Of a stretch of DNA of 23,899 bases, positions 594-21,782 are shown piece after piece. The notes beneath the pieces are model-generated. The model saw only the letters and a program-made list of their open reading frames with translations, did no database searches and had not been told where the DNA came from. Position 1 is the first letter of the stretch. Each line of letters starts with the position of its first letter. The stretch lies in the IMG/VR virus record IMGVR_UViG_3300017516_000033, positions 1 to 23,899 of that record; one strand, written 5' to 3'. The translations under genes and the position numbers were made by a program. This stretch comes from a virus.

Positions 594-851
594 ATGAGTA
601 ATTATTACCATCCATATCAAGATCAAGGTGATACAAGAGTATTTTCAAGCAATGTATCACAAGATCAGTTAGTTTGGCATAGAGATAGAGAAGATAGAGT
701 AGTAGAGGTGGTAGGTGAAACAGATTGGCAATTTCAATTCGATAATCAATTACCTCAACCACTAAAAACAATACTATTTATACCAAAAGGAGTTTATCAT
801 AGATTAATAAAAGGAAACAACACATTAGAAATAAAAATAACTAAGCTATGA
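594..851 (+). CDS. small cupin-like conserved phage protein
   Basis: An 85-residue protein. The core VWHRDREDRVVEVVGETDWQFQFDNQLP followed by FIPKGVYHRLIKG is a well-conserved small phage protein pattern. The alternating hydrophobic strands and the closing motif IPKGVYHRLIKGNNTLEIKI resemble the second half of a single-domain cupin (beta barrel), with His residues in WHRD and YHR as possible metal ligands. The function is unknown. The gene begins 10 bases after the previous one and its stop overlaps the next start (ATGA, 848-851), which suggests translational coupling. The cupin reading is an inference from motif shape and was not tested by structure. Confidence 0.75.
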   Translation: MSNYYHPYQDQGDTRVFSSNVSQDQLVWHRDREDRVVEVVGETDWQFQFDNQLPQPLKTILFIPKGVYHRLIKGNNTLEIKITKL

Positions 852-1246
852 AGATAACAAATATCATCTTAGAAAGCAATAAAAAAACCAAGCGTAAAAC
901 CAATAGGACAGCTTTGCAAAGAGAATCTAAAATTCAAGAAATCACTGAAAATGATGTTGAATTTTTAGAAAGCTCTATGCAAAATGAACTTCAACAAAAA
1001 TACAACGATAGAATTGCTGGAAGAGTTGTAGTAAGTTTAATCAAAAAACTTAGATCAAACACTATTGTAGGTACAGTGAAGTTTTTAACAGATACAGATC
1101 TCCCACCTAAAATTAGTTCTGAAGTAGTAGACTATTTAAAAAATAAGGATTTTGAAATTGAACATATATGGGATAAATATGAGGTAGACCCAGGCGAAAG
1201 AATATACTATCCAGAAGTTAGTTTTTATAAGGAGTCAGAGCAATAA
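848..1246 (+). CDS. hypothetical protein, charged, with LxE-type N-terminus
   Basis: A 132-residue protein with no family I recognise. It starts with a short hydrophobic N-terminus, MKITNIILES, that resembles the head-targeting peptides seen in other genes of this window. A Lys/Arg-rich stretch follows (about residues 11-28), then a mixed alpha/beta body containing GRVVVSLIKKLRSN and VGTVKFLTDTDLPPKI. It overlaps the upstream gene by 4 bases (ATGA), so it is read as the last gene of a three-gene run that ends before the 109-base gap at 1247-1355. Coding status is supported by length, overlap and balanced composition. Function is not assigned. Confidence 0.7.
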   Translation: MKITNIILESNKKTKRKTNRTALQRESKIQEITENDVEFLESSMQNELQQKYNDRIAGRVVVSLIKKLRSNTIVGTVKFLTDTDLPPKISSEVVDYLKNKDFEIEHIWDKYEVDPGERIYYPEVSFYKESEQ

Positions 1247-3082: not shown

Positions 3083-3141
3083 GTAGAATATTAGGTACAG
3101 TTAAATTATTTTTGTATCTTTACAAAAAAAAAACTATTGTA

Positions 3142-4053
3142 ATGGGAGGAAATATTTTTGATAGAACAGCACCAATAAAAAAAGAACATATTGAACCAAC
3201 ACTAGAGGTGTTCTACCAGCAATTAGGTTCTATCTTTCCAAACGCTAAAAAGCACTTCACAACAATACAAACTTTAGGGTCGGTAGGTAAAAAAGATTAT
3301 TCTGGAGACATTGACTTAGCGTTATCAGGCAGTACTTTTAAAAATATTAAAGATTGGGGGTTAGAGCAGCAAGAAGTTGAAGATTTATTTAATAAGTTCA
3401 AAAAAAGAGCAAGATCAGCAACAGATAAGCAACTGATTAAAAGGGCTGTTATAGTTGCAATTGCTGATCACATAGAAGCAACAAATTCAGATATAAAAAC
3501 AGATACTAAAGGATCAAGTTCAGGAGCACTGTTTTTATCATTCCCACAGTATGACGAAGAAGAACAACAGCTAGATCAACGAGTACAAATAGATCTAAAT
3601 GTAGGAGATTTAGATTGGTTATCATTCACCTACTACTCCAGTACATATAAGGGTAATGTAAAGGGACTGCACAGAACACAACTAATGTTAGCATTGTTTA
3701 GTAACAAGCAGCATACTTTTTCTCACAACTACGGAGTGAAAGACAAACAATCAGGAGAAATAGTAGCAAATTCACCAAACGAAGCAATTGAACTGCTATC
3801 ACAACTATATCAAGTAGACTTTACTAAACAAATACTACAAGATTATTTTAAGCTATTTGACTTTTTAAGAAACAACTTACAACAATCGGATTTACAAGAT
3901 GTTTTAGATATATATATAAAAATACTAGACAGAACCAGAGCTGATATTCCAGAAGATTTACAAAAGTATTGGGTAGACAACCAGGAAAGATTGCAACTAA
4001 CAGGAAAGTTTTTACCGGATGATTCAAAACTATCTTCTTTTAAAAAGCAATAA
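3142..4053 (+). CDS. polymerase-beta-type nucleotidyltransferase-like protein
   Basis: A 303-residue protein starting at ATG 3142 (MGGNIFDRT). An in-frame TTG at 3112 lies inside the presumed promoter area and is rejected as start. The segment LGSVGKKDYSGDIDLAL matches the pol-beta NTase signature: Gly 46-Ser 47, then Asp 56-x-Asp 58. A plausible third metal-binding Asp is in QRVQIDLNV (Asp 151). The fold transfers NMP groups to protein, RNA or small molecules, so the substrate cannot be told. The next gene opens with another domain bearing the same signature, so the two may be diverged duplicates or partners. A stretch of alternating charged and polar residues at the C-terminus has no recognisable domain. 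Confidence 0.75.
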   Translation: MGGNIFDRTAPIKKEHIEPTLEVFYQQLGSIFPNAKKHFTTIQTLGSVGKKDYSGDIDLALSGSTFKNIKDWGLEQQEVEDLFNKFKKRARSATDKQLIKRAVIVAIADHIEATNSDIKTDTKGSSSGALFLSFPQYDEEEQQLDQRVQIDLNVGDLDWLSFTYYSSTYKGNVKGLHRTQLMLALFSNKQHTFSHNYGVKDKQSGEIVANSPNEAIELLSQLYQVDFTKQILQDYFKLFDFLRNNLQQSDLQDVLDIYIKILDRTRADIPEDLQKYWVDNQERLQLTGKFLPDDSKLSSFKKQ

Positions 4054-4083: not shown

Positions 4084-6105
4084 TTGAGTGGAGTAGCAGG
4101 GGGTACCCGAATACAAAAAGCAGATGTACAAAAGACTTTTGACAAATACGTCAAGGAGATCTTAAATAATATTGATGGGTTTAAAAAAGCAACATTATCA
4201 GGTAGTGTTAAAGTAGGAGCTAAACCAGACTATGGTGATTTAGATATAATAACGCATTTCCAAGCTAGTGATAAAAAACAAGCAAAACAAAACATAATTT
4301 CACTAGTAAAATCTAAGCCAGACAGTTTAATAGTACCTTTCAAAAGTGAAAGATATCAAGGTAGGAAATATTACAACTCAGGAGAAATAATAACAGTATT
4401 ATATCCAATTGAAGGAAAACAAGACCAATTTATACAAATAGATAATATTATTGCTCTGTCTGACGAGGAGCATGGATTCAAAAACAACTTTCTTGACGTA
4501 CCAGCTGCAAAACAAGGATTGATATTAGGATTAGCAAAGGTAATCTTACTTGAAGAAAACCCATCACAAGTGTTTAGTAGGTTAGGTATTAAAGATATAC
4601 CAACATTACAAGACGATGAAGAGTTGGAATTTAATTTAAGTTCAAACAAACTAACTTTAAGAAAGGTAAAATTACAAAACTTTAAAACAATAAGTAAGCA
4701 GGAGGTATGGTCATCTACTGATTGGAGTTTAATAAATAAGTTATTTAAAAACTATAATATAGATGGATCTTTTGAACAACTATTACAACAAATAAAATCC
4801 AAAGTAAAAAATCCAAGATCAAAAAAAAGGATCAAAGGATTATTTAACAGCATGGTTTCAATTAAGTCAGGAGAAGTTGGAACACCGAAAGGACAAGGTA
4901 AGCAACAAGCGTTGGATGCTGTTAACTCGTTATTAGAGAATACTGAAACAACCAAATCTGTAGGATTGTATGCTGGTGGATTCAAACCACCACATAAAAT
5001 GCATTTTAAAAATGCACAGTTGCTAGGATCTAAAGTAGACAAACTTATAGTATTTGTAGGACCTAAAGTAAGAGAAGGAATCAAAATTACTGCTAAACAA
5101 TCTAGAGATATATGGCAAATATATAGTTTATATCTTAATGTTCCTGTTGAAATAATTATTAGCCAAACTTCACCAATAAAAGATTTGTATGATTGGGTTG
5201 ATCAAAATAAGGATCAATACAAAGAAGTAGTAACAGGAGCAATGGCTTCTGAAATGAGTAAGTTTAAATATTTTGAAAAAAATAAACAAAACTACTCAAA
5301 TATACAAGTAGTAACTTTACCAGAACTCAAGCTTAAAAAGCAAGATAGTAAATTCTCTGCATCTACTATAAGATCATCTAAGGATTATGTCAAATCAGCA
5401 GAATGGATACCAAACAAAATTAGCTCACCTGATAAAAAAAATATAGTTAACATAGCATTGCAAAATGCACCTACAGAAAAAGAAGTTAAAATGCAAGAGG
5501 CAATGGAACAGACCTTAGATGAGCTATTTACAAATAAAAAACAAAAAATGAAAAACGAAGGATCATCTGGGACACATATAGGTCCTAACAGCGTAACCAG
5601 ATCAGAAAATAGGCAACAACTGGTTAATGCTTATAAAATGCTAAACAGAACTTTAAATACTGATAATTTTGATATCAATTTTAATCAAGATCATATAATA
5701 GTAAAAGTCAGGCAGGAAGGAGAAAGATTTGATTTTGACTACACTCCATATATGTCTTCTATTTTAGAACACATGATGAATGAAGAAATTAAAATTACAC
5801 CATTACCAGAAATAAAAATAAGAAAAGACATAAAAGAATCAGCAAATTTTTTTGGTAGGACAGCTCACTACAATCCTAATGAAAACACAATTGTACTATA
5901 CACTCACAATAGACATCCAAAGGATGTAATGAGGTCTTTTACTCACGAAATGATACATCATAAACAAAATTTAGAAGGAAAGTTAAAAGAAGTACAAACA
6001 GCAGATACAAATAATGATAGTTCATTGTTGGAGTTAGAAAAAGAAGCTTACCTCGAAGGAAATATTGTTTTTAGGAATTGGGAAGACGGAGTGAAAAACT
6101 CATAA
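4084..6105 (+). CDS. three-domain fusion: pol-beta NTase, HIGH-type nucleotidyltransferase, HExxH zincin
   Basis: A 673-residue protein beginning at TTG 4084 (reads MSGVAGGTRIQ); no in-frame ATG precedes the first domain, so the TTG is accepted. Domain 1 (about 1-200) has LSGSVKVGAKPDYGDLDI, a pol-beta NTase signature with Gly 40-Ser 41 and Asp 52-x-Asp 54. Domain 2 (about 292-440) has GLYAGGFKPPHKMHF, a GxFxPxHxxH nucleotidyltransferase motif with His 304 and His 307, and FSASTIRSS (424-432), the matching C-terminal motif of NadM/cytidylyltransferase-like enzymes. Domain 3 (about 505-670) has RSFTHEMIHHKQ, a zincin HExxH at 621-625, with a possible third ligand in LELEKEAYLEGN. Between domains 2 and 3 lies QEAMEQTLDELFTNKKQ, similar to the helical peptides at many N-termini in this window. 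Substrates are unknown. A polyprotein cut into separate enzymes is an alternative. Confidence 0.8.
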   Translation: MSGVAGGTRIQKADVQKTFDKYVKEILNNIDGFKKATLSGSVKVGAKPDYGDLDIITHFQASDKKQAKQNIISLVKSKPDSLIVPFKSERYQGRKYYNSGEIITVLYPIEGKQDQFIQIDNIIALSDEEHGFKNNFLDVPAAKQGLILGLAKVILLEENPSQVFSRLGIKDIPTLQDDEELEFNLSSNKLTLRKVKLQNFKTISKQEVWSSTDWSLINKLFKNYNIDGSFEQLLQQIKSKVKNPRSKKRIKGLFNSMVSIKSGEVGTPKGQGKQQALDAVNSLLENTETTKSVGLYAGGFKPPHKMHFKNAQLLGSKVDKLIVFVGPKVREGIKITAKQSRDIWQIYSLYLNVPVEIIISQTSPIKDLYDWVDQNKDQYKEVVTGAMASEMSKFKYFEKNKQNYSNIQVVTLPELKLKKQDSKFSASTIRSSKDYVKSAEWIPNKISSPDKKNIVNIALQNAPTEKEVKMQEAMEQTLDELFTNKKQKMKNEGSSGTHIGPNSVTRSENRQQLVNAYKMLNRTLNTDNFDINFNQDHIIVKVRQEGERFDFDYTPYMSSILEHMMNEEIKITPLPEIKIRKDIKESANFFGRTAHYNPNENTIVLYTHNRHPKDVMRSFTHEMIHHKQNLEGKLKEVQTADTNNDSSLLELEKEAYLEGNIVFRNWEDGVKNS

Positions 6106-6108
6106 TAT

Positions 6109-6480
6109 ATGAACAAACAGGTTACAGTAGATCAAATAGCACAGTATACAAAGCAGGTGTTAATTTTAATAGAAGATTACTATGGGTTTTCTAAACACTA
6201 CAACGATCCTCCTTATATATTTTTAAGTCAAGAAAGGGCAGAGGGACGTAAAGGTGAATTTTGTGATGAAATAAATGAAATTATTTTATATTATAAAAAC
6301 TTAACTAGTTTAGAAGATCTAATTAAAACACTAATACACGAATACCAACACTATTTGCAGTCACCATCATGGTTTACAAGATACTATAATATGGGATATA
6401 GCTATAACAACCATCCTTATGAGGTGCAAGCATACAATGAAGAACAAAAATGGAAACAAATATGCAACAAAGCCTTGTAG
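6109..6480 (+). CDS. small HExxH zinc metallopeptidase-like protein
   Basis: A 123-residue minimal zincin. LIKTLIHEYQHYLQSP carries HEYQH at 77-81 (two His ligands and the catalytic Glu). HPYEVQAYNEE, 24 residues on, offers Glu 105 as third zinc ligand in the E-x-x-A pattern of gluzincins such as the SprT and ImmA-like groups. The protein has no signal peptide or membrane segment, so it acts in the cytoplasm or inside the virion. It begins 3 bases after the three-domain gene, which itself ends in a HExxH domain, so two zincins sit back to back. It overlaps the next gene by 31 bases. The peptidase activity is inferred from the motif and the target is unknown. Confidence 0.8.
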   Translation: MNKQVTVDQIAQYTKQVLILIEDYYGFSKHYNDPPYIFLSQERAEGRKGEFCDEINEIILYYKNLTSLEDLIKTLIHEYQHYLQSPSWFTRYYNMGYSYNNHPYEVQAYNEEQKWKQICNKAL

Positions 6481-7618: not shown

Positions 7619-7966
7619 ATGGAACAAACCAAGCTGCTTGAAAAGGTACTTTTCGAGCTCTCACACATAAAGAAAGGCTTACCCAACGGAGAGTTGAAGC
7701 AGGTCAGAGAATCAACGAAAGAGATTAAAGAGGATCTAACAGAATTGAAAAAACTACTACTTGATCCTGAGAATGGAATAGTCGTAAAAGTAAATAAAAA
7801 TACTGAATTTAGATTAGAAGAGGAAGCAGCAACTAATGAAAACATTAAGTACATACAAGATTTGGAAGCTCTTAAAAAATGGAGAGATAACGTAACTAGA
7901 GCATTGTGGATAATCTTTACTACTTTAGTAGGTATTGGTATTAAAATTATATTTTTTAATGGGTAA
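7619..7966 (+). CDS. coiled-coil protein with C-terminal membrane segment
   Basis: A 115-residue protein. Residues 1-90 are highly charged and predicted helical or coiled coil. A single membrane segment, ALWIIFTTLVGIGIKIIFF (95-113), sits at the very C-terminus after the basic-aromatic KKWRDNVTR. This architecture resembles small phage membrane proteins of the XhlA/hemolysin-like or holin-accessory type, in which a cytoplasmic coiled coil is tail-anchored. No lysozyme or endolysin is next to it, so a lysis role is uncertain. It follows the TATTTATA motif by 30 bases and overlaps the start of the next gene by 8 bases if that gene begins at ATG 7959. Confidence 0.75.
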   Translation: MEQTKLLEKVLFELSHIKKGLPNGELKQVRESTKEIKEDLTELKKLLLDPENGIVVKVNKNTEFRLEEEAATNENIKYIQDLEALKKWRDNVTRALWIIFTTLVGIGIKIIFFNG

Positions 7967-9554
7967 AGAAAATAATAAAAAAAATATAGGTATTGAGGCT
8001 TTTATGAGAGAGTTAGTAAGAGAGTCTCTAAGAGATTGGTTTCAAAAAGAAGATTGGGTTAGAATTACAACAGCAGGTAACATAGCAGGTCCATGTGGTA
8101 CATCTAAAAACGACAAGAATCCCGATAGATGCCTACCTCGTAAAAAAGCTAAATCATTAACAAAATCAGAGAGGGCAGCAACAGCTAGAAAAAAGAAAAA
8201 AGCAGGATCAAAAGGAAAAACAGTTGTCAAAAATACAAAGAAGGCAACAGTTCAAAATGAAACAGCTGATTCACAGGATGGTAAAGCAGCACCTTACGGT
8301 TCAGGATTTAAAAAAATAACAAAAGAAGACATTAAGAACTTAGTAACAGGTACCGTCAATGAACTAAAAAACCAAAATGCGTTAGAAGAGGATAAAGATG
8401 ATAGATGTACTAGAATTGCAAAACGTAAATATGAGACTTGGCCTTGTGTTCCTTTACACAGTGAAGCATTAACTAGGACAGGTTGGAAAACCTACAATCA
8501 ATTATCTATTGGAGAAGAGATTCTTGCCTTCGATATACAGTCGGGAACTTTAAAGTACACTCCAATAGAACATCTACACTTTTATAAAAACGCAGACATA
8601 ACAAAACTAGAAAAACAGAATCACCTAATAGAAGCAACTCCGAACCATAGATGGCTTACATACAGCACTGCAAATAGAGATGAAGAACTATACTCGGAAG
8701 GGTACAACAAAGCTGTTTTTATATACGAATGTATAAGAGAGTATGAGCGTAGTGGAAATATTAATAAATCTATAAATAATTTTAAAACACACATATATCC
8801 TATGTACAAGGATTGTACTATTTGGGAAATATTTGATGTGATCAAACCTCCAGAAGGTAGTCTTAGATTTAAAACCACAGAAGATTTAAAATCTGGAGAC
8901 TTGATAAAATCAGCAGCACCATTAGATGATAGTTATAGTGGTATAGATACTTCTCCTTTTAGAAAATATGATCAGCATAACAACCTACACAAAGTTTTAA
9001 ATTTTAGTAGAAAACAAGCAGAAGCTTACCTATACTCAGCAATAATGTACGATGGATGGGATAATACCAACGATTCGAGATATAGAGATTGTTCAACCTA
9101 CAACAAATTTGCACTAAAACAGAAGGATAGTACACATTCTGATATGTTTGAGATTGCATCAATATACAGTGGATATAATGCAACTAGAGGACGTGACAGC
9201 TCAGGTATGCGAAGCTGCTATGTAGAAGAAAATGACTATATATCTTGTAATGTTTTAAAAAAAGCACAAGGAGACTCTCAAGATGTTTGGTGCCCTACTA
9301 CCCAGTATGGGACTTGGGTAATGAGACAGCATGGTAGAGCTATGATAACAGGAAACTCAGCTTATGCATCGGGAGCAGTGGTAAGATGCAGGAGAGGAGA
9401 AATTTGGAAGGATCTTAAAGAAGATTTAACAGAATCTAAAGCAACTTGCTGTGGTAGATGTGGTAGAGTGCATATACCTAAAAGCAAAGGTGGTCACGGA
9501 TGCAAAAAACCTTATATAAGTAAAGAATCATCAAAACATTGTAAAAACAAATAG
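7959..9554 (+). CDS. conserved phage protein interrupted by an in-frame intein
   Basis: The open frame encodes 531 residues from ATG 7959; an ATG at 7935 in the same frame would add eight residues inside the upstream membrane-segment gene and is less likely. The host protein, once residues 163-466 are removed, is 227 residues. Its N-terminal part has WVRITTAGNIAGPCGTSK, RCLPRKKAKSL and SERAATARKKKKAG, a basic pattern I associate with DUF5872-like phage proteins. The later part is DRCTRIAKRKYETWP joined to SAYASGAVVRCRRG, a motif usually uninterrupted in T4-like marine phages. The C-terminus has Cys pairs (CCGRCG, HGC). An N-terminal helix IEAFMRELVRES resembles head-targeting peptides. Function is unknown, probably nucleic-acid binding or virion-associated. 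Splicing is required for the conserved motif to be continuous. Confidence 0.88.
   Translation: MGKENNKKNIGIEAFMRELVRESLRDWFQKEDWVRITTAGNIAGPCGTSKNDKNPDRCLPRKKAKSLTKSERAATARKKKKAGSKGKTVVKNTKKATVQNETADSQDGKAAPYGSGFKKITKEDIKNLVTGTVNELKNQNALEEDKDDRCTRIAKRKYETWPCVPLHSEALTRTGWKTYNQLSIGEEILAFDIQSGTLKYTPIEHLHFYKNADITKLEKQNHLIEATPNHRWLTYSTANRDEELYSEGYNKAVFIYECIREYERSGNINKSINNFKTHIYPMYKDCTIWEIFDVIKPPEGSLRFKTTEDLKSGDLIKSAAPLDDSYSGIDTSPFRKYDQHNNLHKVLNFSRKQAEAYLYSAIMYDGWDNTNDSRYRDCSTYNKFALKQKDSTHSDMFEIASIYSGYNATRGRDSSGMRSCYVEENDYISCNVLKKAQGDSQDVWCPTTQYGTWVMRQHGRAMITGNSAYASGAVVRCRRGEIWKDLKEDLTESKATCCGRCGRVHIPKSKGGHGCKKPYISKESSKHCKNK
8445..9356 (+). mobile_element. intein, 304 residues, with degenerate LAGLIDADG-like insert
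   Basis: A protein-splicing element lying in frame in the gene at 7959-9554. It starts with Cys 1 (TGT 8445-8447) in CVPLHSEALTRTGWKTYNQL, a block A sequence, followed by GEEILAFD. Block B is LIEATPNHRWLT with Thr 65 and His 68. The end is VWCPTTQYGTWVMRQHGR then AMITGN, with Asn 304 (AAC 9354-9356) before the +1 Ser, a block F/G of a type common in phage inteins. The penultimate residue is Gly rather than the usual His. Between B and F, AEAYLYSAIMYDG (about 192-204) and FALKQKDSTHSDMFEIASIYSGY resemble one LAGLIDADG repeat with poor conservation. The homing endonuclease is therefore probably degraded. Confidence 0.9.
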
Positions 9555-9555
9555 A

Positions 9556-10032
9556 ATGGAATTTAAAAGCATAATAAAGGATTTGGTGAAAGAAGGGAAG
9601 TTATCAGACTATGGAGACAACAACACACCAGCAGCACTAGAGAAAGAAAAAGAAATAAAAAATAAAAAAGTTAAACCTAAGGATGCTATAAAAGATTTAG
9701 ATCTAAATACATTAGGTAGAAATCAAACTATAAAAGAGTATCGGTATGGACCACTTAATCCGGACGATGAACAAGGAACAAAGGAATTCTGGGAAGATAA
9801 AGCACACATGTGGGATACTACAGTAGAGCATGCAAAAACATCAAGATGTGCTAATTGTGTAGCTTTTAATCAAAAACCAGAAACGTTAAAAAAAATAGCT
9901 GACGGTATAGGAGAGCAAGGTAAACAGATAGTAAAAGAAGCTAACTTAGGCTTTTGTGAATTTTTTTGGTTTAAATGTGCAGGTGCAAGAACTTGTGATG
10001 CATGGGTCGGAGGAGGTCCTTTGGACAAATAA
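9556..10032 (+). CDS. conserved Cys-rich phage protein (possible metal or Fe-S binder)
   Basis: A 158-residue protein of a type conserved in T4-like marine phages. The N-terminal helix MEFKSIIKDLVKEGK resembles the shared targeting peptides. A charged linker leads to YRYGPLNPDDE and FWEDKAHMWDTTVEHAKTS. The C-terminal part holds five Cys: RCANCVAF (98, 101), GFCEFF (134), FKC (141) and RTCDAW (147), ending in GGGPLDK. The Cys spacing suggests a bound metal or a small iron-sulfur cluster, which I cannot confirm. It begins one base after the intein-carrying gene, so the two are probably co-translated. The next gene starts 4 bases after its stop. Confidence 0.75.
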   Translation: MEFKSIIKDLVKEGKLSDYGDNNTPAALEKEKEIKNKKVKPKDAIKDLDLNTLGRNQTIKEYRYGPLNPDDEQGTKEFWEDKAHMWDTTVEHAKTSRCANCVAFNQKPETLKKIADGIGEQGKQIVKEANLGFCEFFWFKCAGARTCDAWVGGGPLDK

Positions 10033-10036
10033 ATCT

Positions 10037-10525
10037 ATGAAAAGATTTGAATTAAATCAAATTGTTAGGCAAGTTTTAAACGAAACTATTCGTAAAGTAG
10101 ATGGAAAGTATGCTGTATATCCTCAAAGAGGTGGTAAGAGGTTAGGAACTCACTCTACAAAAAAAGCAGCTGAAAAACAACCAACTGCCATCCATTTAAA
10201 CAAAGAGCAATCAGAACAAGGAACTGTAGATATAACATTACAGAATATTAAAGGAAATAAAGTCGTTCTTGCGATTATGGATGGTGAAAAGTTAGGAGCT
10301 TTGAGATTAAAACCATACCTTAGTTCATATCAAGTAGACTCAGTACTTGTAAGAGACGAATACCAAGGAATGGGAATTGGTACAGAAATGTATAGGCTAG
10401 CTCATCAAAAGCTAGGACCTTTATATTCTGATCAAAATCCTAGCAACCAAGCTGAGGGTTTATGGAAATCTTTAGTATATAAAGGAGAAGCACAGCAGAA
10501 GGGACAGAGGTACGTAATGAAATAA
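10037..10525 (+). CDS. GNAT-family N-acetyltransferase-like protein
   Basis: A 162-residue protein from ATG 10037; upstream in-frame ATG 9956 lies inside the Cys-rich gene and is rejected. The N-terminus MKRFELNQIVRQVLNETI is another targeting-type helix. It is followed by KYAVYPQRGGKRLGTHSTKK, a short segment seen attached to various phage virion proteins. The catalytic part has VDSVLVRDEYQGMGIGTEMY (about 100-119), which fits GNAT motif A with a Q-x-x-G-x-G/A acetyl-CoA loop (QGMGIG). YSDQNPSNQAEGLWKSL follows as motif B. It would transfer an acetyl group from acetyl-CoA to a protein or small molecule. The substrate is unknown, but the N-terminus hints at action in the prohead or on host proteins after injection. 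Confidence 0.78.
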   Translation: MKRFELNQIVRQVLNETIRKVDGKYAVYPQRGGKRLGTHSTKKAAEKQPTAIHLNKEQSEQGTVDITLQNIKGNKVVLAIMDGEKLGALRLKPYLSSYQVDSVLVRDEYQGMGIGTEMYRLAHQKLGPLYSDQNPSNQAEGLWKSLVYKGEAQQKGQRYVMK

Positions 10526-19505: not shown

Positions 19506-21204
19506 ATACAACGCAGTACAAGAAGGAAATTATTCTAGATCTCAATTTGTTAGGGATAGTAGTATGCAACTACCAAATGTAATTTCACAAACAAATTCTT
19601 ATGATGATGTGGTAAGAATTTTAAAAAGTAAGCGAATGCTATCTGAAGATAAGCAGCAGGAAACCACTCAGTATGAGAAACCGCATGCAGGAATACCATT
19701 AGAGGCTTTTGACAGAGCAGTTGATTATGAATTGGAAGCAGCAGGCGTTGACACAGCAACTGAAACTCCTTCAACGGAACAGTACAACAAGGCTGCTGAA
19801 AAAGCCAATAACAACTTAGATAAAGATATAAACCATTATTTACATTTAATGTCCAATGACTCTAACAAAGTTGATAAGCATGACCAATTGGTACAATATA
19901 GCGATAAGGATAAAGTAGATACAATTAACGGATTAAAAAAAGTTGATTTAAAAGAAATCTACAACCTATCCGAGCAAGAAGATAAAATGTCAAAAGATGA
20001 AGTGATAAATTCATTTGAAGAAAACATTCTACCTACTATCGAAAAGGCAGAGAAAGGTGAGATAGACGTTTCAATGCGAAGACAGGAGTTTAATAACTAT
20101 ATAGATATGTTACATTCAAATGGAGAAATTTCTGATGAGCTGGTCGATAGTATAACATTGCCGGATAGGTTGGAAAAAGTTCAAGAAGAAGAAGTTCCTG
20201 TAGACAAGAGGATATCTGCAGATCAGGCATCAAAAATTGCAAAGTTGGCAAACAAAGTAGAACCAGATGCTAGTGATAAAATACAACAGTTAATTAACTT
20301 TTATCAAGACCAGATACCAAACCATAAAGTTAAAAAGATACTTAACAAGTATGACTTATCTCAAATTAAATTAAAGGAAGCTATGACCAAACAACCTTTA
20401 AAGGAAGCAAGACGTAAGAGAATACAAGGTGGTAAAGCTGTAAAAGAAAACGACTACGATTCTGGAGGATATGTAGACACAATGCAACCAAAGCTTGACG
20501 ATGCAGTGAACAGAGTATTAAAAGTTTGGAATCAATGGAAAAATGCACCTGACACACAACCAGGAATGATTCCTCATGCAAAAAAGGATTTGATAGAATA
20601 CTTTACAAATAGACTTGATCTAAACGTAATAGAAGATCAAAAAGCAAATAAAGACTACGATGGAGACGGTCAAATAGAAACACCAGAGCAGGAGTATTTA
20701 GGATCTAGAGATAAAGCTATTAAAAACAATATTAAAGAGCAAAGTGTTGATCAACTTAAACAAATGTTTAAGAAAAAGATCGTCAATATTCTTAAAGAAA
20801 ACAATCAAATTCTAAGTGAAGCCAAGACAGAAAACTTAGAAGAGTTTTTACATTATGAGAACGAGGATAATGAAGATTTAGCAGCTAGAATAAGAAAAGC
20901 AGCAGCTGATTTGCAAGATATAATTGGTTCGTTAGAGAAAAGTCATATAGATGTTAGGGAAAAAGTTGAAAGTGTTTATAAAAACATAGGGTCGTTTATG
21001 GCACCTGCAGTAGAAGCAGCGTTCAAAAAAGATCTACAACCTGTACTAAATAAGTTGTATAATATACAAGTACCTAAAGGTAAAAGAATGTCAAGAGAAG
21101 AGATGGAAGAGTTGGGTATAAATCCATCGAGTACAACAGGAACAGTGTTTTCTTTGAAGGAAGGCAAAAAACGTAAAAAAACTAAATATACTAAAAGAAA
21201 GTAA
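19486..21204 (+). CDS. large head-core protein candidate with EF-hand-like loop
   Basis: A 572-residue protein from ATG 19486; an in-frame TTG at 19474 adds four residues. The start MRTLQDRYNAVQEGNYSRSQ, followed by FVRDSSMQLPN, is a conserved phage pattern at this position. The body is long, charged and helical. Residues about 390-404 read DYDGDGQIETPEQEY, very close to a calcium-binding EF-hand or dockerin loop with Asp, Asp, Asp and Glu at ligand places. Internal helices such as LKQMFKKKIVNILKENNQIL resemble the targeting peptides of its neighbours. The C-terminus is basic (KKRKKTKYTKRK). It lies directly before gp21 with a 1-base overlap, in the T4 67/68 interval. A core-scaffold role is an inference. 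Confidence 0.75.
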   Translation: MRTLQDRYNAVQEGNYSRSQFVRDSSMQLPNVISQTNSYDDVVRILKSKRMLSEDKQQETTQYEKPHAGIPLEAFDRAVDYELEAAGVDTATETPSTEQYNKAAEKANNNLDKDINHYLHLMSNDSNKVDKHDQLVQYSDKDKVDTINGLKKVDLKEIYNLSEQEDKMSKDEVINSFEENILPTIEKAEKGEIDVSMRRQEFNNYIDMLHSNGEISDELVDSITLPDRLEKVQEEEVPVDKRISADQASKIAKLANKVEPDASDKIQQLINFYQDQIPNHKVKKILNKYDLSQIKLKEAMTKQPLKEARRKRIQGGKAVKENDYDSGGYVDTMQPKLDDAVNRVLKVWNQWKNAPDTQPGMIPHAKKDLIEYFTNRLDLNVIEDQKANKDYDGDGQIETPEQEYLGSRDKAIKNNIKEQSVDQLKQMFKKKIVNILKENNQILSEAKTENLEEFLHYENEDNEDLAARIRKAAADLQDIIGSLEKSHIDVREKVESVYKNIGSFMAPAVEAAFKKDLQPVLNKLYNIQVPKGKRMSREEMEELGINPSSTTGTVFSLKEGKKRKKTKYTKRK

Positions 21205-21782
21205 TGAAAAATCTACTGATTGATACAACTGCTTTTAAACCTACAATAAGGGAGTCTAAAACTAAACCAGGTGTGTTTGAAGTTGAAGGACTATTGCAAA
21301 AAGCAGGAGCAAAAAACCAAAATGGAAGAGTATATGAAAAGTCAATCTTAAAGAGAGAATGCGATAGGTATACTAATGAGTTTATAAACAATGGCAATGC
21401 TTTTGGAGAATTGGACCATCCTGAATCAGCAATAGTATCATTAAAAAACGCATCACATATAGTAAAAGAAATTTGGTGGGAAGGAGAAGACTTAATGGGT
21501 AGAATTGAGCTTCTAAACACACCTTCAGGTAATATAGTTAAACAAATTATACAAGCGGGACATACAGTAGGGATTTCATCAAGAGGTACTGGTTCAGTAC
21601 AGCAAACCAATGAAAGTACTTTAGAGGTACAAGATGATTTTGAGTTGGTTTGTTGGGACTTTGTATCCAATCCATCAACCCATGGAGCTTTCATGAATCC
21701 GATATCATTAAACGAAAGCAAAGAAACATTAGACAAATACGCTAGAGTACATTCAATAATAAACGATATATTAAGATCATAA
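21204..21782 (+). CDS. 21: prohead core protein protease (T4 gp21-like)
   Basis: A 192-residue serine protease that matures the prohead by cutting scaffold and capsid proteins, in T4 after Leu/Ile-x-Glu. Catalytic landmarks are FGELDHPESA with His 72 and HTVGISSRGTG with Ser 125/126. CWDFVSNPSTHGAFM (150-164) holds the conserved Asp-Phe-Val region. NQNGRVYEKSILKRE (38-52) is a further family motif. The size is close to T4 gp21 (212). The start ATG 21204 overlaps the preceding stop by one base. A long antisense frame over this gene is a compositional shadow. The many neighbours with hydrophobic-x-Glu N-termini are its predicted substrates. Confidence 0.94.
   Translation: MKNLLIDTTAFKPTIRESKTKPGVFEVEGLLQKAGAKNQNGRVYEKSILKRECDRYTNEFINNGNAFGELDHPESAIVSLKNASHIVKEIWWEGEDLMGRIELLNTPSGNIVKQIIQAGHTVGISSRGTGSVQQTNESTLEVQDDFELVCWDFVSNPSTHGAFMNPISLNESKETLDKYARVHSIINDILRS

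What the first reader, a model, noticed from the sequence alone, without database searches (positions are those of the whole stretch)
4084..6105. Three-enzyme fusion: pol-beta NTase, HIGH-motif nucleotidyltransferase and HExxH zincin
Three separate catalytic signatures lie in order within one 673-residue frame: GS..GDLDI, GGFKPPHKMHF with SASTIR, and HEMIHH. I know of no characterised protein with this combination. It could be a multi-step modifying enzyme (for example nucleotidylation plus proteolysis) or a polyprotein matured by its own zincin or by gp21.
Basis: partly seen in the sequence, partly recalled or inferred. Interest (0 to 1): 0.72.

Follow-up and report, generated by a model that had tools for sequence, protein, structure and literature searches.

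The report
Phage three-enzyme fusion, predicted capsid cargo
A virus of aquatic bacteria makes one protein containing two different nucleotide-transferring enzymes and a metal-dependent protease, most likely a package of host-attack enzymes that relatives cut apart inside the virus head and inject with the DNA.

Summary
Window 4084-6105 is one open frame (673 aa, TTG start) with three domains: pol-beta-type nucleotidyltransferase (NT1), HIGH-superfamily nucleotidyltransferase (HIGH) and HExxH zincin (ZIN). It is not an assembly error. The fusion recurs over its whole length in cultured Flavobacterium phage immuto (52.6% identity) and in about 43 distinct complete ORFs of viral contigs. All three catalytic motifs are conserved, and each domain is under purifying selection (dN/dS about 0.1).

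It lies in a conserved locus between primase/exonuclease and terminase/portal/gp21 of T4-like phages. In most relatives the inter-domain linkers carry gp21-type (hydrophobic-x-E|A/G) sites that resemble N-terminal capsid-targeting tags on neighbouring genes. Stand-alone HIGH relatives carry that tag at the same spot. In three T4-like cyanophages, tagged HIGH-type proteins were found in virions by mass spectrometry. In 68 loci the two pol-beta genes are replaced by a tagged zeta-toxin-like kinase upstream of HIGH-ZIN, and the two arrangements never co-occur.

Best reading: a modular, injected-effector polyprotein, akin to "polyvalent proteins" but with a new domain set and probably gp21 processing. 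Weak points: no N-terminal tag, degenerate linkers in this window's own copy, and substrates unknown.

The parts
4084..6105 (+). three-domain fusion ORF, 673 aa, TTG start (homologs mostly ATG at the same MSGVAGG)
   Evidence: full-length homologs
4084..4935 (+). domain 1 (NT1), pol-beta-type nucleotidyltransferase, residues 1-284
   Evidence: invariant GS/GDxD/D120 in 30 relatives; Foldseek to DNA polymerase beta/lambda E 1e-4; occurs as a gene of its own in L062
4201..4248 (+). GSVKVGAKPDYGDLDI motif (first two catalytic acids D52, D54)
4441..4443 (+). D120, likely third catalytic carboxylate (QIDN)
   Evidence: invariant; role inferred from pol-beta superfamily knowledge
4921..4959 (+). linker 1 (SLLE|N here; TLSE|A, TLAE|A or VLTE|A in relatives), gp21-type site
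   Evidence: the window's own copy ranks only 26 of 46 Glu
4957..5472 (+). domain 2 (HIGH), HIGH-superfamily adenylyl/cytidylyltransferase, residues 292-463
   Evidence: VIA-align Z 12-13 to PPAT and NMNAT; PF01467 in 24/30 relatives; profile hit to M. jannaschii NMNAT 1f9a E 1e-4
4975..5004 (+). GGFKPPHKMH (HxxH motif of HIGH NTases)
5353..5373 (+). FSASTIR (counterpart of ISSTxIR)
5473..5595 (+). linker 2 (KMKNE|GSSG here; VVKE|G, TIKE|G or QLKE|A in relatives), low pLDDT
   Evidence: the window's own copy ranks 13 of 46 Glu
5596..6102 (+). domain 3 (ZIN), zincin-like metallopeptidase domain, residues 505-673
   Evidence: H621, E622, H625, E652, E654 invariant; structural hits to IrrE-like and SprT-like viral proteins
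5944..5961 (+). HEMIHH zinc-binding and catalytic motif
6037..6045 (+). E652 and E654, candidate third zinc ligand
   Evidence: invariant in A5; role inferred
3142..4053 (+). UP, partner gene: second pol-beta-fold NTase (GSVGKKDYSGDIDLAL, VQID), upstream of NT1 in every locus where both are readable
   Evidence: AF2 pLDDT 87.7, pTM 0.81; Z 9-10 to ASFV PolX and pol beta; co-occurrence
6109..6480 (+). Z2, small HExxH gene (LIHEYQHY) downstream; in immuto-type phages a different HExxH domain (IMCT) is fused here instead
848..1246 (+). example of a neighbour with an N-terminal capsid-targeting-like tag (MKITNIILE|S)
   Evidence: statistics
21204..21782 (+). gp21-like prohead protease, the predicted processing enzyme
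   Evidence: PHROG 207, E 4e-53

Best explanation
A modular effector polyprotein of a T4-like phage of aquatic bacteria (host inferred as Bacteroidota from immuto). SHOWN: the three-domain fusion is real and conserved. NT1 has a pol-beta-type fold, HIGH a PPAT/NMNAT fold, and ZIN an invariant zincin motif. The locus is modular: domains occur alone, split, or with extra domains at the linkers, and the UP-NT1 pair is swapped for a zeta-toxin-like kinase. INFERRED: the protein is made late and enters the prohead core. In most relatives gp21 then cuts after Glu in the linkers, releasing separate NTase(s), adenylyltransferase and zincin, which are injected with the DNA to modify host nucleotides, NAD, RNA or proteins at the start of infection. 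In this window's own copy the linker sites are weak, so it may be delivered with domains still joined or cut by its own zincin. The substrates of each domain are not known.
For: (1) Real conserved fusion: immuto 52.6% over 673 aa; 43 distinct complete NT1-HIGH-ZIN(-IMCT) ORFs; dN/dS about 0.09-0.11 per domain. (2) Tag clustering: in immuto, 22 of 30 genes of the 101-127 kb block that holds this gene have [ILVMF]xE within residues 5-18, against 38 of 181 elsewhere, where the rate does not exceed internal background (Fisher P 4e-8). Across all loci, 292 of 1441 N-termini match [ILVMF]xE|[GAS] against 52 of 1441 internal windows. (3) The presumed gp23 cleavage site of immuto is QIVSE|A, like linkers TLAE|A, VVKE|G and VMAE|G. 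(4) Scored with a profile made only from tags of other genes, the linker Glu are among the best of 50-90 Glu per protein in most relatives; linker 2 is often first. (5) Stand-alone HIGH genes carry a tag exactly there (L147 MKTFKQFVTE|A; L062 LILE|G), and tblastn aligns the L147 tag onto the immuto linker. (6) Domain inserts in L020 and L027 and the split in L019 fall at these linkers and bring further LxE sites. (7) HIGH-type proteins found in virions by mass spectrometry in S-CREM2, S-SZBM1 and S-SCSM1 begin MKNFSSFLTE|A, MRFRQFIIE|A and MKSFLQFLKE|A. (8) UP-NT1 and the tagged kinase never co-occur (136 loci with both UP and NT1, 68 with the kinase; overlapping loci counted).
Against: NT1 and UP in this window have no N-terminal tag (only some UP homologs do), so entry of NT1 into the prohead must use an internal or other signal. 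The window's own linkers are degenerate: SLLE|N ranks 26 of 46 and KMKNE|G 13 of 46. The site motif is short; 10 other conserved matches lie inside folded domains. Mass-spectrometry data concern distant HIGH relatives only, and their authors warn of co-purification. No cleavage product has been observed.
Confidence: 0.5

Rival explanations
1. Cytoplasmic multi-enzyme: the fused NTases and zincin work in the infected cell, not in the virion (for example NAD or nucleotide salvage, or nucleic-acid end repair by UP, NT1 and HIGH), and fusion only secures co-expression.
For: No N-terminal tag on UP or NT1. The locus sits next to primase and exonuclease and before a 5'-nucleotidase. UP and NT1 resemble family X polymerases in fold. 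HIGH NTases serve NAD salvage in other phages (PMC9503650).
Against: Most genes of the block are tagged, linkers look like tags, and HIGH relatives of T4-like cyanophages were found in virions. A metabolic reading leaves the zincin and the zeta-kinase swap unexplained.
Confidence: 0.25
2. Polyvalent-type protein that is processed by its own zincin, as proposed for phage P1 DdrB, rather than by gp21.
For: The zincin is the commonest domain of polyvalent proteins and is proposed to process them (PMC5512222). ZIN catalytic residues are invariant. The window's own gp21-type sites are weak.
Against: Most relatives keep good gp21-type linker sites, and ZIN is present even where the other domains are separate genes (L122, L019), so it is not needed only for self-processing.
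Confidence: 0.15
3. One or more domains are catalytically dead and serve as binding or structural modules of the head core.
For: Variant motifs: HxxH without the usual Gly of HxGH in most members, and SAS in place of SST. No close characterised homolog.
Against: All expected catalytic residues are kept in nearly every member, with dN/dS about 0.1.
Confidence: 0.07
4. Artefact: separate genes joined by sequencing or assembly error, or chance motifs.
For: None found.
Against: Full-length conservation in a cultured phage and in about 43 distinct complete ORFs.
Confidence: 0.01

Closest known systems
Flavobacterium phage vB_FspM_immuto gp183 (QQO91862, 'nicotinamide mononucleotide adenylyltransferase')
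   Same: Full-length homolog, same three domains in the same order, same UP gene upstream
   Different: Carries a fourth C-terminal HExxH domain (IMCT); annotated as a simple NMN adenylyltransferase
Polyvalent proteins (Iyer et al. 2017, PMC5512222)
   Same: Phage multi-domain polypeptide joining unrelated enzymes, zincin included; predicted to be injected
   Different: Pol-beta NTases were reported there only in conjugative-element proteins and HIGH NTases are not mentioned; here processing by gp21 at linkers is predicted in most relatives
T4 internal proteins and Alt (capsid-targeted, gp21-processed, injected)
   Same: T4-type head module with gp21; tags of L/I-x-E type on neighbours and at linkers
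   Different: T4 cargo proteins are single genes; here several enzymes form one chain and the N-terminus has no tag
Cytidylyltransferase/NMNAT-like virion proteins of T4-like cyanophages (S-CREM2 gp154, S-SZBM1_140, S-SCSM1_91)
   Same: HIGH-superfamily NTase of a T4-like phage, tag at the N-terminus, found in virions by mass spectrometry
   Different: Stand-alone; only weakly similar in sequence (hhalign E 5e-5 over 30 columns for S-CREM2 gp154)
NMN adenylyltransferase / phosphopantetheine adenylyltransferase (NadM, NadR, CoaD)
   Same: Fold of domain 2
   Different: No Nudix or kinase partner domain; substrate unknown; 10-18% identity
Family X DNA polymerases (pol beta, pol lambda, ASFV PolX)
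   Same: Fold of NT1 and UP and the three acidic residues
   Different: Polymerase activity not shown; sequence similarity negligible

Membership tests
Pol-beta nucleotidyltransferase superfamily (NT1) | hG[GS]...DxD plus a third Asp | tested here: met
   G40, S41, D52, D54 and D120 invariant in 30 relatives
Pol-beta nucleotidyltransferase superfamily (NT1) | pol-beta palm fold | tested here: met
   AF2 model, Foldseek to pol beta/lambda E 1e-4, TM to target only 0.34-0.46; PF01909 in 7/30, best E 0.007
HIGH-superfamily NTases (PF01467) | HxGH/HxxH and ISSTxIR-type motifs | tested here: met
   H304 and H307 at least 90% conserved; SASTIR variant
HIGH-superfamily NTases (PF01467) | Rossmann-like fold of PPAT/NMNAT | tested here: met
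   Z 12-13, 140-150 residues aligned
NMN adenylyltransferase | adenylation of NMN | not testable with these tools
   needs an assay; PPAT and NMNAT are about equally close in fold
Zincin metallopeptidases (ZIN) | HExxH plus a downstream third ligand | tested here: met
   H621, E622, H625 and E652/E654 invariant
Zincin metallopeptidases (ZIN) | zincin fold | tested here: inconclusive
   Hits to viral IrrE-like/SprT-like predicted structures; no PDB hit; domain not folded alone
Polyvalent proteins | several unrelated enzymatic domains in one phage polypeptide | tested here: met
Polyvalent proteins | domains from the published polyvalent set with relatedness to its MPTase clades | not tested
   published alignments not available here
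Polyvalent proteins | packaged and injected | not testable with these tools
   needs proteomics and injection assays
T4-type capsid-targeted gp21 substrates | N-terminal capsid-targeting tag ending L/I-x-E | tested here: not met
   NT1 starts MSGVAGG with no tag in any member
T4-type capsid-targeted gp21 substrates | gp21-type site in internal linkers (most relatives) | tested here: met
T4-type capsid-targeted gp21 substrates | gp21-type site in the window's own linkers | tested here: inconclusive
   SLLE|N fits the bare L/I-x-E rule but scores low; KMKNE|G lacks the hydrophobic P3

The most novel reading that the evidence does not exclude
Many aquatic T4-like phages use a virus-style effector polyprotein: host-directed enzymes are strung on one chain, separated by built-in capsid-targeting/cleavage linkers. 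The head protease cuts them into a set of enzymes to be injected, and the upstream slot is exchanged between a pol-beta NTase pair and a zeta-type kinase.
Probability: 0.4. Interest if true: 0.8.

Novelty: new variant of a known kind. Interest (0 to 1): 0.6.

Why it matters
If right, it extends T4-type head cargo from single internal proteins to multi-enzyme polyproteins whose linkers double as targeting and cleavage signals. It gives a sequence rule (hydrophobic-x-E|A/G at domain borders plus N-terminal tags) for predicting injected enzymes in abundant, mostly unannotated aquatic phages. It also adds the pol-beta plus HIGH NTase plus zincin combination to phage effector biology. A cultured host-phage pair (immuto with Flavobacterium sp. 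LMO8) makes it directly testable.

Tried and rejected
A single-sequence scan of viral contigs with the whole protein found nothing, probably because its peptide patterns were poorly chosen; a two-sequence alignment found 22 loci. Pfam gave no hit above its cut-offs for the window's protein, PHROGs only weak ones, and sequence search of PDB none. Profile search of PDB with the zincin domain gave none. hhalign between ZIN, Z2 and IMCT gave only weak motif-level matches, so I do not claim they are one family; UP against NT1 is suggestive (E 7e-4 over 48 columns), not proof of paralogy. The bare gp21 motif by conservation alone was judged non-specific (13 conserved matches, 3 at linkers), hence the tag-profile test. 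S-CBWM1 NMNAT, also reported from virions, has no obvious tag. The pdb_via list for the fused protein was filled by the HIGH domain, so it says nothing on ZIN. Literature searches found no report of this domain combination, but the library held is incomplete.

Full report
OBSERVATION. The window is a 23.9-kb virus record with a T4-type head module: terminase, portal, gp21-like protease (PHROG 207, E 4e-53) and scaffold-like genes. ORF 4084-6105 is open for 673 codons. Relatives turn them from pattern into evidence: in an alignment of 30 sequences G40, S41, G51, D52, D54 and D120 are invariant, H304 and H307 nearly so, and in the zincin domain H621, E622, H625, E652 and E654 never change. Pfam CTP_transf_like matches 24 of 30 members and NTP_transf_2 7 of 30.

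STRUCTURE. AF2 gives mean pLDDT 79 with low-confidence stretches at 287-289 and 485-504, between the three domains, and pTM 0.43, so domain arrangement is not fixed. The N-terminal part matches DNA polymerases beta and lambda (Foldseek E 1e-4). Residues 289-465 match PPAT and NMNAT (Z about 13 over some 147 residues). The zincin part has only matches to viral IrrE-like and SprT-like predictions. The upstream gene 3142-4053 gives a good model (pLDDT 87.7) and matches family X polymerases, ASFV PolX first (Z 9.7). A shared fold shows no function.

THE FUSION IS REAL. Flavobacterium phage immuto encodes a full-length homolog (52.6% identity, 100% of the query) with an additional C-terminal domain that has its own HEIEH motif. 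Viral contigs supply 43 distinct complete NT1-HIGH-ZIN or NT1-HIGH-ZIN-IMCT frames, the window's own included. Median dN/dS among close relatives is 0.088 (NT1), 0.091 (HIGH) and 0.113 (ZIN), against 0.215 in linker 2. So all three domains are selected for.

THE LOCUS IS MODULAR. L062 has NT1 and a separate HIGH-type gene. L019 splits between HIGH and ZIN. L030 and three others end after HIGH. L045 has the C-terminal domain as a gene of its own. L020 and L027 carry extra domains inserted exactly at the linkers; the insert of L027 weakly resembles PF24591 YunG-like. In 51 further complete frames HIGH-ZIN stands without NT1. In those phages the place of UP-NT1, after primase and exonuclease, is taken by a Zeta_toxin-family kinase (PF06414 E 6e-11 and 3e-13). 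Of the loci counted (overlapping ones included), 136 have UP and NT1, 68 have the kinase, and none has both.

WHY CAPSID CARGO. T4 gp21 cuts after L/I-x-E, and T4 internal proteins carry short N-terminal capsid-targeting sequences that gp21 removes (PMC9026906). The presumed gp23 site of immuto is QIVSE|A. In immuto, 22 of 30 genes between 101 and 127 kb carry such a motif in residues 5-18, against 38 of 181 elsewhere (Fisher P 4e-8), and the latter does not exceed the internal background. Over all loci, 292 of 1441 N-termini have hydrophobic-x-E|G/A/S against 52 of 1441 internal windows. The swapped-in kinases nearly all start with such a tag, for example MIKLSDLILE|A. The fused protein has its counterpart at the linkers: TLSE|A or TLAE|A, VVKE|G or TIKE|G, VMAE|G. 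A profile made only from tags of other genes puts these linker Glu among the best of 50-90 Glu per protein in most relatives; linker 2 is often first. The stand-alone HIGH protein L147 begins MKTFKQFVTE|A, and tblastn aligns that tag onto the immuto linker.

INDEPENDENT EXPERIMENTAL HINT. Mass spectrometry found cytidylyltransferase/NMNAT-like proteins in virions of the T4-like cyanophages S-CREM2 (PMC10665884), S-SZBM1 (PMC9146016) and S-SCSM1 (PMC9602691). I read their genes: they begin MKNFSSFLTE|A, MRFRQFIIE|A and MKSFLQFLKE|A, textbook T4-type tags. The authors themselves warn that co-purification is not excluded. Sequence similarity of S-CREM2 gp154 to the window's HIGH family is weak (hhalign E 5e-5 over 30 columns).

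WHAT DOES NOT FIT. NT1 never has an N-terminal tag. The window's own linkers are among the weakest of the set: SLLE|N ranks 26 of 46 and KMKNE|G 13 of 46. Ten other conserved motif matches lie in folded parts. So for this particular phage, cleavage at the linkers is less certain than for immuto-type relatives, and the zincin could do the cutting or act on host proteins.

COMPARISON WITH THE KNOWN. The nearest concept is polyvalent proteins (PMC5512222): multi-domain injected proteins with zincins as hub domain and proposed auto-processing. There, pol-beta NTases occur only in proteins of conjugative elements, and HIGH NTases are not mentioned. Phage NAD-salvage reviews describe HIGH NTases fused to Nudix or kinase domains, not to a pol-beta NTase or zincin. 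Hence 'new variant of a known kind'. It works like a polyvalent protein; membership in the published families was not tested.

CONFIDENCE. Three-domain fusion and fold identity of NT1 and HIGH: about 0.95. Zincin identity: about 0.9. Capsid cargo: about 0.55. gp21 processing in immuto-type relatives: about 0.5; in this window's own copy: about 0.35. Substrates: unknown.

Noticed in passing
7935-9554: A 539-aa ORF looks like an intein-type insertion. Orthologs (L019 12468-12959; immuto 111184-111654) read on through KY..PSAY.SGA.VRCR, whereas here about 300 residues that begin with Cys (CVPLHSEALTRTGWKTYNQLSIGEEIL) and end GN|S interrupt the motif just before SAYASGA. No Pfam hit.
   Followed up: partly
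L178:3400-4344, L202:3332-4276 and 66 further loci: A Zeta_toxin-family P-loop kinase with a capsid-targeting-like N-terminus (MIKLSDLILE|A) replaces the UP-NT1 NTase pair upstream of HIGH-ZIN; the two arrangements never co-occur.
   Followed up: yes
L027:8972-12220: 1083-aa version with an extra domain between NT1 and HIGH (conserved-looking Cys and GHVWLEYKGKYYDAE; weak PF24591 YunG-like) and about 90 aa before the C-terminal HExxH domain.
   Followed up: partly
9956-10525: GNAT acetyltransferase (PF00583) in the same block; a likely internal start gives an N-terminal tag-like MKRFELNQIVRQVLNE.
   Followed up: no
3142-4053: Distant relatives of the UP NTase occur in jumbo phages of Rhizobiales (Agrobacterium phage Atu_ph07, Sinorhizobium phage Phosso; 26-27% identity).
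   Followed up: no
3095-3142: A Bacteroidota-type promoter-like stretch (TTTTTGTATCTTTAC) just upstream of the likely ATG start of UP at 3142.
   Followed up: no
immuto MW353175 101-127 kb; L171, L178, L202, L210: A large set of small unknown genes with MK(L/I)S(D/Q)(I/L)ILxE|G/A N-termini, probably an extensive repertoire of capsid-targeted proteins in this phage group.
   Followed up: partly
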